From NCBI RefSeq assembly GCF_016863275.1, contig NZ_BOOO01000013.1, positions 1 to 64,000 of the forward strand: a stretch of 64,000 nt of DNA. The letters run 5' to 3'. Every line of letters starts with the position of its first letter. Within the stretch, counting starts at the first letter, position 1. The notes beneath the pieces are model-generated. The model saw only the letters and a list, made by a program, of their open reading frames with translations, was not told where the DNA came from and ran no database searches. This DNA is from Planotetraspora mira. GTDB taxonomy: Bacteria > Actinomycetota > Actinomycetes > Streptosporangiales > Streptosporangiaceae. The translations under genes were made by a program, and so were the position numbers. Below are positions 15,161-26,818 of this stretch, in pieces.

Positions 15161-16818
15161 TGAGCCTCCAGGTAGCGGTGGATGAGGGACACCGCCATCG
15201 CGCCCTCGCCCACCGCCGAGGCGACGCGCTTGACCGAATCGGCCCGCACGTCGCCCGCGGCGAAGACGCCGGGCATGCTGCTTTCCAGGTGGTAGGGGTC
15301 GCGGGGGAGCGTCCACCCGGCCGGTCGCCGGCCCTCGGCGAGGAGGTCGGGACCGGTGATGACGAAACCGTGCTGATCGCGGGCGATCACGTCGTCCAGC
15401 CAGTCGGTGCGCGGCTCGGCTCCGATGAACACGAAGAGCCAGGAGGTCTCCACGGTCCTTGTGGTACCCGTGCGCGAGTCGCACAACGTGAGCCGTTCGA
15501 GATGCTCGGCACCCTCGCCGCGGACGACCGCCGTGTGCGGGTGCACCTCGATGTTCGGGATCTCCTTGATTTGATCGATCAGATACCGCGACATCGAGCG
15601 GGTGAGATCGTCGCCCCGCACGAGGATGTGGACCCGCCGGGCGTAGTGCGCGAAGTACACGGCCGCCTGGCCGGCGGAGTTCGCCCCGCCGACGATGTAG
15701 ATCTCCTCGTCCGTGCAGCCTGGCGCCTCGGTCGCGGCGGAGCCGTAGAAGACGCCCCGTCCGGTCAGCTCGTCAAGGCCCGGGGCGTCGAGCCTGCGGT
15801 AGGACACGCCGGTGGCCAGCACCACCGTGTGTGCGGCGATGGCCGTGCCGTCGCCGAACCGCAGGAGGCGGGTCGTGGTCCCCCCGCCCTCCAGGCCGAT
15901 CACCTCGCGGGTGGTGAGCAGTTCCGCGCCGAACCGCAGGGCCTGCCTGCGGGCGCGGTCGGTGAGCTGGGCGCCGGACACCCCGTTGGGGAAACCGAGG
16001 TAGTTCTCGATCCGGCTGCTCTGGCCGGCCTGCCCGCCGGTGGCGCGTTGCTCGACGAGCACGGTCCGCAGCCCCTCGGACGCGCCGTAGACGGCGGCGC
16101 CGAGGCCCGCTGGCCCCGCGCCGACCACGGCCACGTCGTAGAACTCCGAGGCGGGCGTGGTCGACAGGCCCACGTGGGCGGCGAGGTCCGCCTCGGTCGG
16201 CTTGACCAGCGACTTGCCGTCCGGCGTGACCACCACCGGCACGTCGGCCTCCGACAGCCCGGCCGCGGCGAGCAGGCGTGCCGCCTCCGGGTCGTCGGTC
16301 AGCAGCCACCGGTACGGCACGAGGTTCCTGGCCAGGAAGTCCCGTACGGCGAACGACGGCGCGGACCACCGGTTGCCGATGACCCTGGTCTCGGGAACGG
16401 ACGTGTCGGGCGTCGCCAGCCACGCGTCGAGCAGGGCGTCGACCACCGGATAGAGCTTCTCCTCCGGCGGGTTCCACGGCTTGAGCAGGTAGTGGTCGAG
16501 GTCGACGAGGTTGATGGCGTCGATGGCGGCGTCGGTGTCGGCGTAGGCGGTCAGCAGGACCCTGCGCGCCAGCGGGAAGAACTCCATCGCCTGCTCAAGG
16601 AACTGGATGCCGTTCATGTGGGGCATCCGGTAGTCGGCGAGCATCACCGCGACCTGTTCGCCGCGCAGCTTGATCTCGCGCAGTGCGTCCAGGGCGGAGT
16701 CCCCCGACTCCGCGCGGACCACCCGGTAACGGTCGCCGTATCGGCGCCGGACGTCACGGGCGACGGCGCGCGAGACGGCCGGATCGTCATCCACGGTCAG
16801 AATCGCGGGGTTTGCCAT
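15157..16818 (-). CDS. response regulator fused to thioredoxin-reductase-like flavoprotein
   Basis: A 553-residue fusion. Residues 1-125 are a receiver domain with Asp62 (VMLADYRMPHMNG) and Lys113 (LLKPW). A linker domain (about 140-215) follows, then an FAD/NAD(P)H oxidoreductase of the TrxB type (226-553) with GAGPAGLG at 233-240, the NAD(P)H motif GGANSAGQAA around 377-386, and a C-terminal FAD motif GVFAAGDVR. The CxxC redox pair of thioredoxin reductase is absent: the region reads GVFYGSAATEA. It therefore cannot act as a classical disulfide reductase. The ATG at 16818 follows GGATGG; an ATG at 16827 is an alternative. It precedes the histidine kinase with an ATGA overlap. Confidence 0.93.
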   Translation of the reverse strand: MANPAILTVDDDPAVSRAVARDVRRRYGDRYRVVRAESGDSALDALREIKLRGEQVAVMLADYRMPHMNGIQFLEQAMEFFPLARRVLLTAYADTDAAIDAINLVDLDHYLLKPWNPPEEKLYPVVDALLDAWLATPDTSVPETRVIGNRWSAPSFAVRDFLARNLVPYRWLLTDDPEAARLLAAAGLSEADVPVVVTPDGKSLVKPTEADLAAHVGLSTTPASEFYDVAVVGAGPAGLGAAVYGASEGLRTVLVEQRATGGQAGQSSRIENYLGFPNGVSGAQLTDRARRQALRFGAELLTTREVIGLEGGGTTTRLLRFGDGTAIAAHTVVLATGVSYRRLDAPGLDELTGRGVFYGSAATEAPGCTDEEIYIVGGANSAGQAAVYFAHYARRVHILVRGDDLTRSMSRYLIDQIKEIPNIEVHPHTAVVRGEGAEHLERLTLCDSRTGTTRTVETSWLFVFIGAEPRTDWLDDVIARDQHGFVITGPDLLAEGRRPAGWTLPRDPYHLESSMPGVFAAGDVRADSVKRVASAVGEGAMAVSLIHRYLEAQ

Positions 16819-16870
16819 GGAAACCATCCAATCACGTTCGTTTGAACGGGTGGTTTCGGAAAACTCCGTA

Positions 16871-16906
16871 GGGCCGTAGGTCCCGCCAAGCGGTGACTTT
16901 CGGCCC
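16871..16906. promoter_or_regulatory. two DosR/DevR-like boxes in divergent promoter
   Basis: Two sites fit the GGGnCnnnnGnCCC core of DosR/DevR-type response regulators: GGGCCGTAGGTCCC at 16871-16884 and GTGACTTTCGGCCC at 16893-16906 (one mismatch). They are 22 bp apart, two helical turns, as in tandem DosR sites. They lie between the fused response regulator/flavoprotein gene and the CBS-BON gene. Confidence 0.6.
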
Positions 16907-16959
16907 ACTCCGAGGCCGGGACCCGAAGGCCAGGCTGGTGCTGAGGGGAGGAGAGCGCC

Positions 16960-17625
16960 GTGCCGATGACCGTGCGTGACGTCATGAGCAGATTCGTGAT
17001 CGCGGTCGAGACCGGCGCCTCGTTCTCCGACGTGGTCAACGCCGTGTGCCGCTTCAACGTCGACGCGGTGCCGGTGGTGGACCAGGACAAGTGCGTGCTG
17101 GGTGTGATCTCCGACGACGACCTGCTGCTCAAGGGGCTCGGAGGAGGGCGGACCGGAGACTCGATCTTCGAAGGCGCGGCGCGCCGCCGTGAGCGCAGGA
17201 AGGCCATGGGCCGCACCGCCGCGGAGATCATGACTTCCCCGGCGGTAACGGTCACGGAGGACACGGCACTGCGGCACGCGGCGCACCTCATGCACGACAA
17301 CAGGATCAGGCAACTCCCCGTGGTGGACGCCCGGACGGGATCCATCCTCGGCCTCGTCCGCCAGGCGGACCTGCTGAAGGTCTTCTCGAGGTCTCCGGAG
17401 GACATCCGCGACGAGGTGATCGCCATGGTCGGGCCGTACATCCGCAGTTGCACGGTCCAGGTGGAGGACGGCGTGGTCTCGCTGGTGGGCAGCGTGGACC
17501 GCCGGTCGCGGATCGCGATCCTCCTCGACGCGGTCTGGCAGGTGGACGGCGTCGTCGACGTGGAGGCCGAGGTCTCGTACGCGGAGGACGACCTCGGCAG
17601 GACCGTCCCGCCGCTCTACATCTGA
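16960..17625 (+). CDS. CBS-CBS-BON domain protein
   Basis: A 221-residue soluble protein with two CBS motifs (about 7-60 and 84-140; MTVRDVMSRFVIAVETG and TAAEIMTSPAVTVTEDTA), forming an adenine-nucleotide-sensing Bateman module, and a C-terminal BON domain (about 150-215, VEDGVVSLVGSVDRRS). Proteins of this build often belong to hypoxia/dormancy regulons in actinobacteria (family knowledge). GTG at 16960 sits 7 nt after AGGAG in GAGGGGAGGAGAG; ATG at 16966 is an alternative. It is divergent from the response regulator/flavoprotein operon across a promoter with DosR-like boxes and is followed closely by a second CBS gene. Confidence 0.93.
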   Translation: MPMTVRDVMSRFVIAVETGASFSDVVNAVCRFNVDAVPVVDQDKCVLGVISDDDLLLKGLGGGRTGDSIFEGAARRRERRKAMGRTAAEIMTSPAVTVTEDTALRHAAHLMHDNRIRQLPVVDARTGSILGLVRQADLLKVFSRSPEDIRDEVIAMVGPYIRSCTVQVEDGVVSLVGSVDRRSRIAILLDAVWQVDGVVDVEAEVSYAEDDLGRTVPPLYI

Positions 17626-21709: not shown

Positions 21710-22582
21710 TCAGATCTTCTTCCAGAGCGCCGGCACGTTGGGCGGCTCCCATCCGGTCAGGGCCGTGTGAGCCTGCAGGCACTGGTAGGTGGACCCGCCG
21801 TAGATGACCTTCGCGCCGACCGCGTAGGCCGTACCGGCCTTCCACGCGGGCGTGGTGCCGGGCGGCGTCTGCGTGGGTGTCGGGGTGGGCGTCGGCGTCG
21901 GGGTGGGTGTGGGGGTCCTCGTGGGCGTCGGGGTGGGTGTCGGCGTGGGGTTGCCGCCGCCCCCGAACGTGACGTCGGAGCAGGTGTAGAACGCCTCAGG
22001 GCTGTCCGAGCGCTGCCAGATCGAATAGATCAGGTGGCGGCCGGACCTGCCGGAGGGGATCGTGCCGGTCATCGTGTACGCGCCGTTGGTCAGCGGCGGG
22101 TCGGTCACCCGCAGGAACGGGGTGGCGTCCAGGTCCGACCACTTGAGCGGCTGGGCGGGGTTGTAGCCCGCCTTGGTGAGGTAGAGCTCGAAGGTCCCGC
22201 GGTGGGGCGCGGTCGCGCGGTAGGTGAAGGTGAACGAGCCGGGGTTGACGCTGGTCGCGGGCCAGTCGGTCCGGGCCAGGTCGAATCCCTTGTACTTGTC
22301 GCGGCCCGCGCTGCACAGCTTGCCGTCGGGGATGATCGATCGGCTCTGGCCGCCCGCGTTCGCGAGGTTGATCTCGTTCCAGTCGTAGAGGGCCTGGGTG
22401 CCTCCGGCGGCGACGGCCGCCTTGCAGGCCGCCGACTTCGGGCTCTCGGGGCCCTCCAGGAAGCACGCGTAGGCGCGGCTGACGGGGTTCTGCATGGTGC
22501 CGTGGGCGAGGGCCGCGGGAACGGCCAGCAGTGGGATGCTGCCGAGGACGGCCACGATTGCCGCAGTTCGCTTCCTGCTCAT
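21710..22582 (-). CDS. lytic polysaccharide monooxygenase AA10 with CBM5/12
   Basis: Secreted copper enzyme that oxidatively cleaves chitin or cellulose, 290 residues. The signal peptide ends at ALA, leaving His27 as the new N-terminus (HGTMQNPVSR), the first histidine of the copper brace; His127 (ATAPHRGTFELYLTK) is the second. The AA10 domain runs to about 208, followed by a Pro-Thr repeat linker (about 211-245) and a C-terminal CBM5/12-type module with AWKAGTAYAVGAKVIYGG. That module suggests chitin as substrate. The ATG at 22582 is preceded by AAAGGAG; an in-frame start at 22621 lacks this. The promoter carries an AT-rich inverted repeat. Confidence 0.95.
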   Translation of the reverse strand: MSRKRTAAIVAVLGSIPLLAVPAALAHGTMQNPVSRAYACFLEGPESPKSAACKAAVAAGGTQALYDWNEINLANAGGQSRSIIPDGKLCSAGRDKYKGFDLARTDWPATSVNPGSFTFTYRATAPHRGTFELYLTKAGYNPAQPLKWSDLDATPFLRVTDPPLTNGAYTMTGTIPSGRSGRHLIYSIWQRSDSPEAFYTCSDVTFGGGGNPTPTPTPTPTRTPTPTPTPTPTPTPTQTPPGTTPAWKAGTAYAVGAKVIYGGSTYQCLQAHTALTGWEPPNVPALWKKI

Positions 22583-22665: not shown

Positions 22666-22737
22666 TGATCGAAGTTACTCCCAGAAAAGACCCCGGTCAA
22701 CAACCCCCGCCCCGTCACCCCCCTCCTCCTTTCCCGC

Positions 22738-22853
22738 GTGATCATGCACGCTTTCGTGATCAAGGCCGCTGGCCTGCGCCTTCCCTGGGTGTGATCATGC
22801 GCAGGTTCGTGAATTCATGTCCTGACCTGGGCATATGCCGTTCGTGATCATGC
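22738..22853. repeat. 53-bp-period array, left arm
   Basis: GTGATCATGC occurs at 22738, 22791 and 22844, exactly 53 bp apart. The spacers share words with the right arm (23329-23443), which carries the same 10-mer three times in inverted orientation. The 10-mer contains the palindrome TGATCA. Confidence 0.75.
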
Positions 22854-22917
22854 AATTCCTTGCGACGGTCCGGAGCGACCGGGCCGACGCCCGGTCAGTG
22901 AGCCGGCCGCGATCGGC

Positions 22918-23249
22918 TCAGCCGATGTAGGTGCGGGCCCCGTGCGCGGACCTGGGGGACGACCCCAGGGCCGCCGGCGGCTACCGCCTCGAAGAGGCTC
23001 CGATGCCGGCGGACGCCGTCGCCGATCTCGGCCGCCGCCGCCCCGCCGGGGTGGATGCTCTCCCAGGCCCTGCTCGTCGAGCAGGCGCAGCGCCTCGTTT
23101 AGTGCCTCGCGCAGAGGGGTGCGGCTGATGCCGGACCGCCGGATGAGCTGCCCCTCGACCAACCGGTCGCCGGGTCGCAGGGCGCCGCTGAGGATCTCCT
23201 CGCGCGGGCGGTTCATGGACGACTCCACCTGGCTGACGACCTCGAGCAC
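22918..23249 (-). pseudogene. decayed GntR/FadR-type regulator
   Basis: The minus strand encodes a GntR winged-helix start (EILSGALRPGDRLVEGQLIR, then SGISRTPLREAL) beginning at GTG 23249 behind AGGAGG. After LLDEQGLGE the frame runs into Arg/Pro-rich nonsense. Other frames contain pieces like the end of an FCD sensor domain (RHRSLFEAVAAGGP). Only about 330 bp remain of a gene that is normally about 650-700 bp, so there is an internal deletion and at least one frameshift. It sits between two inverted repeat arrays, which suggests rearrangement through them. Confidence 0.65.
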
Positions 23250-23328
23250 TCCCACACCTCCTCGCACCCGACTGCGGCAGATGACGCCGGCTCCCTGCGC
23301 TTCCCGTACGGCCATGCCTGTCGTCTGC

Positions 23329-23443
23329 GCATGATCACGGAGGGAGTAATGCCAGGTCAGGGCGTTTTTTACGAAGGTGCGCATGATCACGGGCTGCATC
23401 GGCGCAGGTCGGCCGATGCTTCTCCGAATGTGTGCATGATCAC
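23329..23443. repeat. 53-bp-period array, right arm (inverted)
   Basis: GCATGATCAC, the complement of the left-arm 10-mer, occurs at 23329, 23381 and 23434 (spacing 52 and 53). Read on the minus strand the arm matches the left one, including shared spacer words CCTGCGCC and CCTGACCTGG at the same order and distance. The pair forms an imperfect inverted repeat of about 115 bp per arm around the GntR remnant. Confidence 0.75.
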
Positions 23444-24463: not shown

Positions 24464-26818
24464 CTACTTCTTGCGGCGGCGCTTCAGCGTCCCCGCCACG
24501 CGCTGCAGGATGCGCTCCCAGTCGGAGCCGAACGGGTTGTCCTGAACGAGGTACGTCCACGTCGCGGTGGGCCGCTTGAGACCCTGGTCGGCCAGGTCGG
24601 CGGTGACGTCCGCCGTCTCGAACGTCTCCTTCGACCGCTGCTCGACCTCGTCGAGCAGGCTGCGATAGGCAGGCGCCGCCTCGCGGTTGAACTCGTCGAG
24701 CGGGTTGAGCCGTCCGAGCGCCCGCAGATGGATGCCCTCGCGGAGGTCCGCCAGATAACCGAGGTGCTCGGTCCAGCACCTGTCCAGATGGAACAGCACG
24801 ATCTGCCGGCATGCCTGCTCGACGACGTCGGCGCCGACCGTCTCGCTCAGCTCGCGGAAGCGGTCGGGGAGAGCCGTCCGCAGCGCCTCCGCCGCGGCGT
24901 CGCCGTGGAGGACCCGGTCGCGCAGCTCGAGGACGTGCGTCCGCTGCTCCTCCATGAGCCGGGTGTAGCGCCAGGTGTTGCGGTGGATCTCCAGGTTGAC
25001 GCCCTCCGCGACCCGCTGGGCGTGCGCCACGAGATCTTCCGCCCGCTTTTGCCGTACGACCCCGTCGGGGTCGGCGCCGGGGAGTGACTCCCCGGCCGCG
25101 TACGCGGTGAGCAACTCGTCTTCGCCGCTGACGAAGAAGACCGAGCCGCCGGGGTCGCCCTGCCGCCCGGCCCGGCCGCGGAGCTGGTCGTCGAGCCTGC
25201 TGCTGTCGTGCCGCCCGGTGCCGATGACGTACAGCCCGCCGAGGTCCGCGACGTTACGCTCCGTGGACTCTGCGACGGATTCTCCGACGGACTCTTCGGC
25301 GGGATCCCCAAGGGACGCTCCGCTGGAATCCCCGGTGGAATCCTCGATGGTCCCGCCGTCGTCGCCCGCCGGCCGTCCGCCGAGCCGGATGTCGGTGCCG
25401 CGGCCGGCCATCTGGGTGGAGACCGTGATCGTGCCGAGGGCGCCGGCCCTGGCGATGATCGCCGCTTCTTCCGCGTCGTTCTTGGCGTTGAGCACCACAG
25501 GCCGCAGCCCCCGGGCGCGGAGCGCCTCGTCGAGGCGCTCGGACTCCGCGACGTCGAGCGTGCCGATCAGGATGGGACGGCCGGTGGCGTGCTGGGCGTC
25601 GATCTCGTCCAGCAGGGCCTCCTGCCTGGCCTCGGCCGTAGCGAAGATCCGGTCGGGCTCGTCCGCCCTGACGCACGGCTTGTTGGGCGGGATCACGGCG
25701 ACCTTGAGGTCGTAGAACTCGCGGAGCTGCTCGCCGACGGCGACGGCCGTCCCGGTCATGCCGCAGATCTCGGGATAGCCGCGCAGCAGGCCCTGGATGG
25801 TCAGGGAGTCGAGGATCTCCCCGGTCTCCGACGCGGGGAGCTTCTCCTTCGCCTCCACCGCCGCCTGGAGCCCGTCGGGCCACCGCTGCAGCAGCGCGAC
25901 GCGTCCACGCGACTGGTTGATCAGATGGACGCGCCCGTCCCTCACGATGTAGTCGACGTCGCGCGTGAGCAGCGCGTGTGCGTGCAGTGCCAGGTTGACC
26001 TCGGTCACCACGCCGGGGTCCTGATAGAGATCGACGCCGAGGGCCTTCTCGACCGTGTCGGTGCCCTTGGCGGTGAGGAAGACGCTCCGCCCCTCCTGGT
26101 CGACCTTGTAGTGGTAGCCGCGGGACAGTCTCCTGACCAGCGCGGCCATCTCCGGCACCGCCGTACCGGGATCGGCGGCCCCGGCCAGCACCAGCGGCAC
26201 GCGGGCCTCGTCGACGAGCACGGAATCGGCCTCGTCCACCAGCGCGACCTGCGGTGTGGGGACGACAAGCTCGGCGGGATCGGTGACCAGCCGGTCGCGG
26301 AGCACGTCGAAGCCGAGCTCGCTGACCGCCGCGTAGGTCACGTCCTTGGTGTAGGCGTCCCGGCGCTCCTCGCGCGTGGAGGTCTCGGAGATCCAGCCGA
26401 CGGTGAGCCCCAGGATCTCGAACAGGGGCCGCATCCACTCGGCGTCACGGCGCGCGAGGTAGTCGTTGACCGACACCGCGTGGACGTGCTTGCCCTGGAG
26501 GGCGAATCCGGCGGCGCTCAGGGCGCCGGCCAGCGTCTTACCCTCACCGGTCGCCATCTGCGCGACGTGTCCGTCCAGCATGGCCAGCATGCCGACGAGC
26601 TGGACGTCGAAGGGCCGCTGACCGAGCGCGCGGCGGGCGGCCTCGCGCATGACGGCGCAGAACTCCGGCGTGCCCACCTCTCCGGCCCGCAGTTCGGTGC
26701 GCTCGCGCACCTCGGCCTCGAGTTCCCCGGCCCGCTCGACCGTTCGCTGGAACGGCGTCAGGTCGACGCTTCCCGGCCTGTCGAGAAAACGCCTGACGAA
26801 GTCAGCTACCGAGGCCAT
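24464..26818 (-). CDS. secA2: accessory Sec translocase SecA2
   Basis: ATP-driven motor of the accessory Sec pathway, 784 residues, shorter than housekeeping SecA and without the C-terminal zinc tail. Walker A is MATGEGKT (88-95), Walker B LVDEADSV (193-200), and the helicase-like second half has [15 protein letters not shown] and [13 protein letters not shown]. Between [10 protein letters not shown] and the next conserved block lies an extra acidic Ser/Glu-rich insert of about 40 residues with repeated ESVGES-like words. The C-terminus is Lys/Arg-rich. In actinobacteria SecA2 exports a subset of proteins, some without signal peptides (family knowledge). The DPBB gene lacking a signal peptide is its convergent neighbour. 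Confidence 0.93.

What the first reader, a model, noticed from the sequence alone, without database searches (positions are those of the whole stretch)
22738..23443. Inverted pair of 53-bp-period GTGATCATGC arrays around a decayed GntR gene
Seen: GTGATCATGC at 22738, 22791, 22844 (exactly 53 bp apart) and its complement at 23329, 23381, 23434. The spacers of both arms share words (TTCG, CCTGCGCC, CCTGACCTGG) in the same order, giving an imperfect inverted repeat of about 115 bp per arm. Between them lies a GntR regulator reduced to half size with frameshifts. This does not match a known IS end or a CRISPR array. It may be an uncharacterised interspersed repeat, a non-autonomous mobile element, or a regulator-binding array.
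Basis: seen in the sequence. Interest (0 to 1): 0.65.

Follow-up and report, generated by a model that had tools for sequence, protein, structure and literature searches.

The report
Phased 53-bp arrays at gene ends
The repeat seen here is one of many copies of a previously undescribed, high-copy DNA element in Planotetraspora and related bacteria, in which a 10-letter word recurs every 53 bases (five turns of the helix) in facing arrays near gene ends; selection preserves it, so it is probably a landing platform for a still unknown DNA-binding protein.

Summary
GTGATCATGC occurs six times in the window (0.16 expected), three per arm, arms facing. The phased pair occurs 644 times in the host genome (Planotetraspora, 9.03 Mb), 139-738 times in four sister species, never in 55 other relatives; a reversed control gives 0. 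Related arrays in altered "dialects" (GTGATCTTGT in Microbispora) occur in three further genera, at one traced locus in the same gene junction in all four. Arms hold 2-5 cores, almost always converge in pairs, and favour gene ends. Between sister species spacers change like neutral intergenic DNA (14.2% vs 15.1%) but the core only 1.0%, TTCG 6.1%, GACCTGCG 5.3%: purifying selection. There is no base-pair covariation inside the unit, no RAYT in this genome, no Tn7/Mu-type transposase tracking the arrays, and no close copy of the window array elsewhere. Best reading: same-face binding platforms for an unidentified clade-specific protein, perhaps insulating gene ends. The protein and the function are inferred, not shown. 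The decayed GntR gene is incidental.

The parts
22707..22737 (+). C-rich outer boundary tract of the left arm (element-wide consensus: C-tract, TT, SSGC, then core)
   Evidence: sequence; the same boundary is found for arms after stops and before starts
22738..22747 (+). core 1 (outermost) of left arm, GTGATCATGC
   Evidence: unit score 38.8
22748..22790 (+). 43-bp spacer of unit 1 with TTCG and GCCTGCGC boxes
   Evidence: consensus
22791..22800 (+). core 2 of left arm
   Evidence: unit score 40.2
22801..22843 (+). 43-bp spacer of unit 2 with TTCG and TGACCTGGGC boxes
22844..22853 (+). core 3 (innermost) of left arm; no consensus spacer after it, as is usual for innermost cores
22921..23249 (-). 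remnant of a GntR/FCD regulator gene (aa 1-61 at 23249-23055; aa 176-211 at 23023-22921, frame shifted; aa 62-175 missing); incidental, intact in P. silvatica
   Evidence: tblastn against the G004 ortholog
23329..23338 (-). core 3 (innermost) of right arm
23339..23380 (-). 42-bp spacer of right arm (52-bp unit)
   Evidence: score 28.6
23381..23390 (-). core 2 of right arm
23391..23433 (-). 43-bp spacer of right outer unit with TTCG and CGACCTGCGC boxes
   Evidence: score 43.8
23434..23443 (-). core 1 (outermost) of right arm

Best explanation
The feature is one copy of a clade-specific, high-copy intergenic element. Its unit is a 53-bp module: core GTGATCATGC, then TTCG about 16 bp in and GACCTGCG about 33 bp in. 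Two to five cores stand in tandem per arm and the two arms face each other across a centre of variable length. 53 bp is five helical turns, so successive cores lie on one face of the DNA. SHOWN: the architecture, the copy number, the fixed phase, selection on the three boxes with neutral spacers, genus-specific dialects, location at gene ends, and conservation of positions. INFERRED: a sequence-specific DNA-binding protein of this clade occupies each unit and forms a regular nucleoprotein arm, two arms making a bridged or looped complex. INFERRED with less certainty: the platforms insulate neighbouring genes, by blocking read-through or by fixing supercoil domains at transcript ends.
For: Genome-wide counts 644, 738, 139, 575, 656 in five Planotetraspora species, reversed-pattern control 0. 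Same-strand spacing 53 in 349 cases, 52 in 33, 54 in 8. Middle cores exact in 135 of 141 triples. Between G000 and G004 the mismatch rate is core 1.0%, TTCG 6.1%, box 3 5.3%, spacer 14.2%, nearby noncoding flank 15.1%; core 1.0% against 26.7% in spacers between G000 and G003/G002. Among 364 non-redundant units only neighbouring columns covary, no base-pair partners, which fits protein-DNA contact. Dialects GTGATCATGC, GTGATCTTGC, GTGATCTTGT with a constant GACCTGCG box. The same gene junction carries a three-core array in Planotetraspora, Microbispora, Planotetraspora sp. A-T 1434 (a separate genus in this collection) and genus g55, each in its own dialect. Convergent junctions 43 of 110 clusters against 19 of 155 background, divergent 10 against 50.
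Against: No protein was identified and no binding or function was measured. In codirectional junctions single arms point with transcription 21 times and against it 16 times, so a simple polar transcription stop does not fit. Bias to 3' ends may only reflect avoidance of promoters. Ten of the 15 Microbispora species searched show no genuine arrays (locus check), so the function is dispensable.
Confidence: 0.5

Rival explanations
1. A selfish foldback element (MITE-like): the arms are transposon ends with several transposase-binding repeats each, moved by a transposase acting in trans; gene-end location reflects avoidance of promoters.
For: Facing arms with tandem subterminal repeats, a defined C-rich outer boundary, a nearly fixed outer 20 bp in Microbispora, bias to convergent junctions, which in pneumococcal BOX/RUP is read as a sign of parasitic repeats (PMC3049150), and one paired array standing where two other species have a gene.
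Against: On the syntenic contig all comparable loci are shared between G000 and G004 and nearly all with G003; some positions are shared across genera; boxes are constrained while spacers are neutral, which dead copies would not show; the best match of the window arms elsewhere in the genome is about 79%, so no recent copying of this one; arms more than 400 bp apart enclose ordinary genes (TypA, CobD, acetyltransferase and others), no transposase; Y1_Tnp is absent from G000, and Mu-transpos_C from most array-bearing genomes.
Confidence: 0.27
2. An RNA-level element: transcribed 3'-UTR hairpins acting as bidirectional terminators or mRNA stabilisers.
For: Innermost cores often meet as a hairpin (GTGATCATGCA ... 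TGCATGATCAC, commonest core distance 34) and some centres hold a longer perfect stem; 98 of 144 arms follow a stop codon; the window region folds better than shuffles, z -6.25.
Against: No covariation between partners inside the unit; spacers of the two arms are only 55% alike against a 50% baseline, so no long paired stem is maintained; exact sequence, not complementarity, is conserved; single arms point against transcription almost as often as with it; no Rfam match at a family's threshold.
Confidence: 0.13
3. A self-recognition mark for DNA exchange, comparable to the DNA uptake sequence of Neisseriaceae, spread by biased uptake and recombination.
For: A short core in hundreds of copies, genus dialects, permissive intergenic places, frequent inverted pairs forming stem-loops, as reported for DUS (PMC3630211).
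Against: DUS are not known in fixed-phase arrays with further boxes; competence is not established here; the long 53-bp module points to a larger DNA-bound complex.
Confidence: 0.05

Closest known systems
BOX elements of Streptococcus pneumoniae
   Same: Intergenic, high copy, tandem modules of variable number (boxB) within a composite repeat, over-represented between convergent genes (PMC3049150)
   Different: Here the tandem modules form both facing arms, in a fixed 53-bp phase with selected boxes and genus dialects; no boxA/boxC
REP/BIME/REPIN elements and their RAYT transposases
   Same: Gene-end, hundreds of copies, inverted pairs, often clustered
   Different: REPs are 20-40-bp palindromes, most with a GTAG or CGTC tag (PMC3733652); here the unit is a 53-bp non-palindromic module and this genome has no Y1_Tnp match
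Neisseriaceae DNA uptake sequences
   Same: Short core in very many copies, dialects per lineage, inverted pairs near terminators (PMC3630211)
   Different: Not phased at 53 bp, no accessory boxes
Multi-site transposon ends (Tn7 TnsB, Mu) and eukaryotic foldback elements
   Same: Several tandem binding sites per end, ends facing inward (own knowledge)
   Different: No transposase between arms or co-occurring; positions static; single-arm copies common

Membership tests
REP/BIME with RAYT | 20-40-bp palindromic unit with GTAG/CGTC tag | tested here: not met
   Unit is a 53-bp non-palindromic module beginning GTGATCATGC
REP/BIME with RAYT | Y1_Tnp (RAYT) in the genome | tested here: not met
   0 in G000, G002, G003, G004; matches only in G001
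BOX element | boxA-(boxB)n-boxC composite | tested here: not met
   Both arms are made of the same unit facing inward; not searched with BOX profiles
MITE / foldback transposon | Terminal inverted repeats | tested here: met
   Facing arms with conserved outer units; single-arm copies are common too
MITE / foldback transposon | Target-site duplications and empty sites | tested here: inconclusive
   One near-empty site in G002 (16-bp gap between gene ends) shows no clear duplication; another array stands where others have a gene
MITE / foldback transposon | Recent near-identical copies | tested here: not met
   Best genomic match of the window arms about 79%; tested for this locus only
Tn7/Mu-type ends | Cognate DDE transposase (Mu-transpos_C) in array-bearing genomes | tested here: not met
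   3 of 12 array-bearing genomes have one; none in G003, G004, G085, G060, G109 or Microbispora
CRISPR array | Unrelated spacers between identical repeats | tested here: not met
   Spacers share fixed boxes and lie in facing arms at many loci
Structured RNA | Compensatory base changes | tested here: not met
   No long-range covariation in 364 units; no Rfam hit at family threshold
DNA uptake sequence | Effect on uptake through a pilin receptor | not testable with these tools
   Needs experiment
Nucleoid-protein binding array | Selection on motif, neutral spacers, fixed phase | tested here: met
Nucleoid-protein binding array | Identified binding protein | not testable with these tools
   No candidate found

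The most novel reading that the evidence does not exclude
A new class of bacterial chromosomal landmark: helically phased facing arrays bound by an unknown protein that co-evolves with hundreds of sites (dialects) and marks gene ends as topological or transcriptional boundaries, with whole-genome gain or loss inside one genus.
Probability: 0.35. Interest if true: 0.88.

Novelty: new variant of a known kind. Interest (0 to 1): 0.74.

Why it matters
Few bacterial interspersed repeats have a demonstrated cellular function. Here the comparison of species separates selected boxes from neutral spacers, gives fixed phasing, genus dialects, and sister species with and without the arrays. That makes the binding factor findable by pull-down and makes the question of how bacterial gene ends are insulated directly testable.

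Tried and rejected
Chance: rejected. REP/RAYT: rejected for this genome. Tn7/Mu-like transposase in trans: no co-occurrence. Autonomous copy with a transposase between arms: the wide arm pairs enclose ordinary genes. RNA hairpin per unit: no covariation. Known RNA family: none. Spread on plasmids or phages: no match in either collection, with one Planotetraspora-type query only. Strict symmetry of the arms from copying: only 6-8% of cross-arm spacer pairs exceed 75% identity against 0.14% baseline, with no fixed register. Strict 3'-UTR function: 46 of 144 arms precede a start codon, the window's among them. Polar transcription stop: 21 with, 16 against. Genes beside the arrays shared between genera are ordinary core genes and gave no candidate binding protein. 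Literature: searches for the 10-mer, Planotetraspora, Microbispora and foldback repeats found nothing describing it; only open-licence papers are searchable.

Full report
CHECK. The arms are imperfect inverted repeats. Between them lies a GntR/FCD gene remnant: the ortholog in G004 is intact (211 aa), while the window keeps aa 1-61 and 176-211 out of frame with each other.

SCALE. The pattern core-N38-48-core hits 644 times in the host genome (window = G000:C13) and 738, 139, 575 and 656 times in G001-G004, all of one genus; the other 55 genomes of the relatives search give none, and the reversed control gives none. The public-genome scan names the genus Planotetraspora, with one hit in Microbispora sp. 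H11081. Contig lengths identify G003 as P. kaengkrachanensis, G004 as P. silvatica, G085 as Planotetraspora sp. A-T 1434 and G209 as Microbispora sp. H11081.

ANATOMY. The unit is GTGATCATGC-A..-TTCG (about position 16) ... YGACCTGCG (about position 33) ... C, repeating at 53 bp (349), 52 (33) or 54 (8). Arms carry 2-5 cores; within a cluster the arms almost always converge, and the few exceptions involve wide-spaced or degenerate sites. Innermost cores often face each other at distance 34, as a hairpin. The outer boundary is a C-tract followed by TT-SSGC, the same whether the arm follows a stop or precedes a start, so it belongs to the element. Of 144 arms, 98 follow the stop codon of a codirectional gene, and in 18 of these the TGA lies inside the core (genes called with a simple home-made caller). 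Clusters: 43 convergent, 57 codirectional, 10 divergent, against 19, 86 and 50 for background gaps over 100 bp. The window copy is one of the divergent minority.

SELECTION. On aligned arrays of G000 and G004 the mismatch rates are core 4/410 (1.0%), TTCG 10/164, box 3 15/282, spacer 182/1285 (14.2%), nearby noncoding flank 109/721 (15.1%), with about 4% in the 1-kb flanks. Spacers therefore evolve like free intergenic DNA and the boxes do not. Units were found by a score that favours intact cores; a less dependent test is that 135 of 141 middle cores flanked by two exact cores are exact and the other six differ by one base. The G000-G003/G002 comparison agrees (a few coding look-alikes are included there). 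Four equal-length arrays show no indel.

STABILITY. All comparable array loci on the syntenic contig are shared by G000 and G004 and all but one by G003; G002 has fewer units per site and lacks three. Units come and go as whole 53-bp steps. At one locus G000 and G004 have a paired array where G003 and G002 have a gene. At the window locus all five species have an array: two arms around an intact GntR (G004), around the remnant (window), two arms without a gene (G001), one arm (G002, G003).

OTHER GENERA. A GTGATC-only phased search over 297 family genomes finds strong arrays in four genera, 13 genomes; weak single hits elsewhere look like coding or simple repeats. Dialects: GTGATCATGC..TTCCCG (A-T 1434), GTGATCTTGC..CTCGC (g55), GTGATCTTGTAGTTTGTCGC outer and GTGATCTTGC inner (Microbispora). 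The junction beside G000:C1:270307 carries a three-core array in the same orientation in all four genera. Of clusters with both flanks recognisable in held Planotetraspora DNA, 6 of 9 (A-T 1434) and 4 of 7 (Microbispora) also have an array there; some of that DNA was fetched because it contains arrays, so these fractions are biased upward (on contigs not so chosen about 2 of 4 and 1 of 3 distinct loci). Ten of the 15 Microbispora species searched have no genuine arrays, and where the flanks could be aligned at the traced locus in array-free species the gap holds unrelated sequence.

MECHANISM. Exact-sequence selection, constant helical phase, local column dependence only and dialects argue for a protein that reads DNA. 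Box 1 and box 3 are about 31 bp (three turns) apart and units five turns apart, hence one face. The factor is unknown; RAYT and Mu/Tn7-type transposases were excluded as general partners. The gene-end location suggests insulation, but promoter avoidance would look similar, and orientation does not follow transcription.

VERDICT. A real, undescribed repeat family; a binding platform is likely; its function is open.

Noticed in passing
L028:3979-4215; G209, G143, G216, G222, G238: Microbispora carries its own dialect (GTGATCTTGTAGTTTGTCGC outer units), while ten other Microbispora species have none: an all-or-none distribution within a genus.
   Followed up: partly
G000:C1:60118-60491 and G004:C2:27032-27405: A paired array stands where G003 and G002 have a convergent gene of about 750 bp; in G000 the upstream gene now ends at the array's TGA.
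   Followed up: partly
G002:C1, reverse-complement of 180001-580000, positions 16697-17254: A 0.5-kb segment next to a shared array is inverted relative to G000, with cores at both ends, as if oppositely oriented cores had recombined.
   Followed up: no
G002, all contigs: Arrays are contracted in this species (139 phased pairs against 575-738); whether its factor is lost or weakened is unknown.
   Followed up: no
window 24464-26818 (-): A 784-aa SecA-like translocase ATPase gene (recognised by eye from its sequence), near the array-containing junction.
   Followed up: no
window 21710-22582 (-): Secreted LPMO_10 with a CBM_5_12 module (Pfam), directly beside the left arm.
   Followed up: yes
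L185:6435-8712: G004 carries two extra genes (an isochorismatase-family protein and an unassigned 527-aa protein) beyond the right arm at the window's locus.
   Followed up: partly
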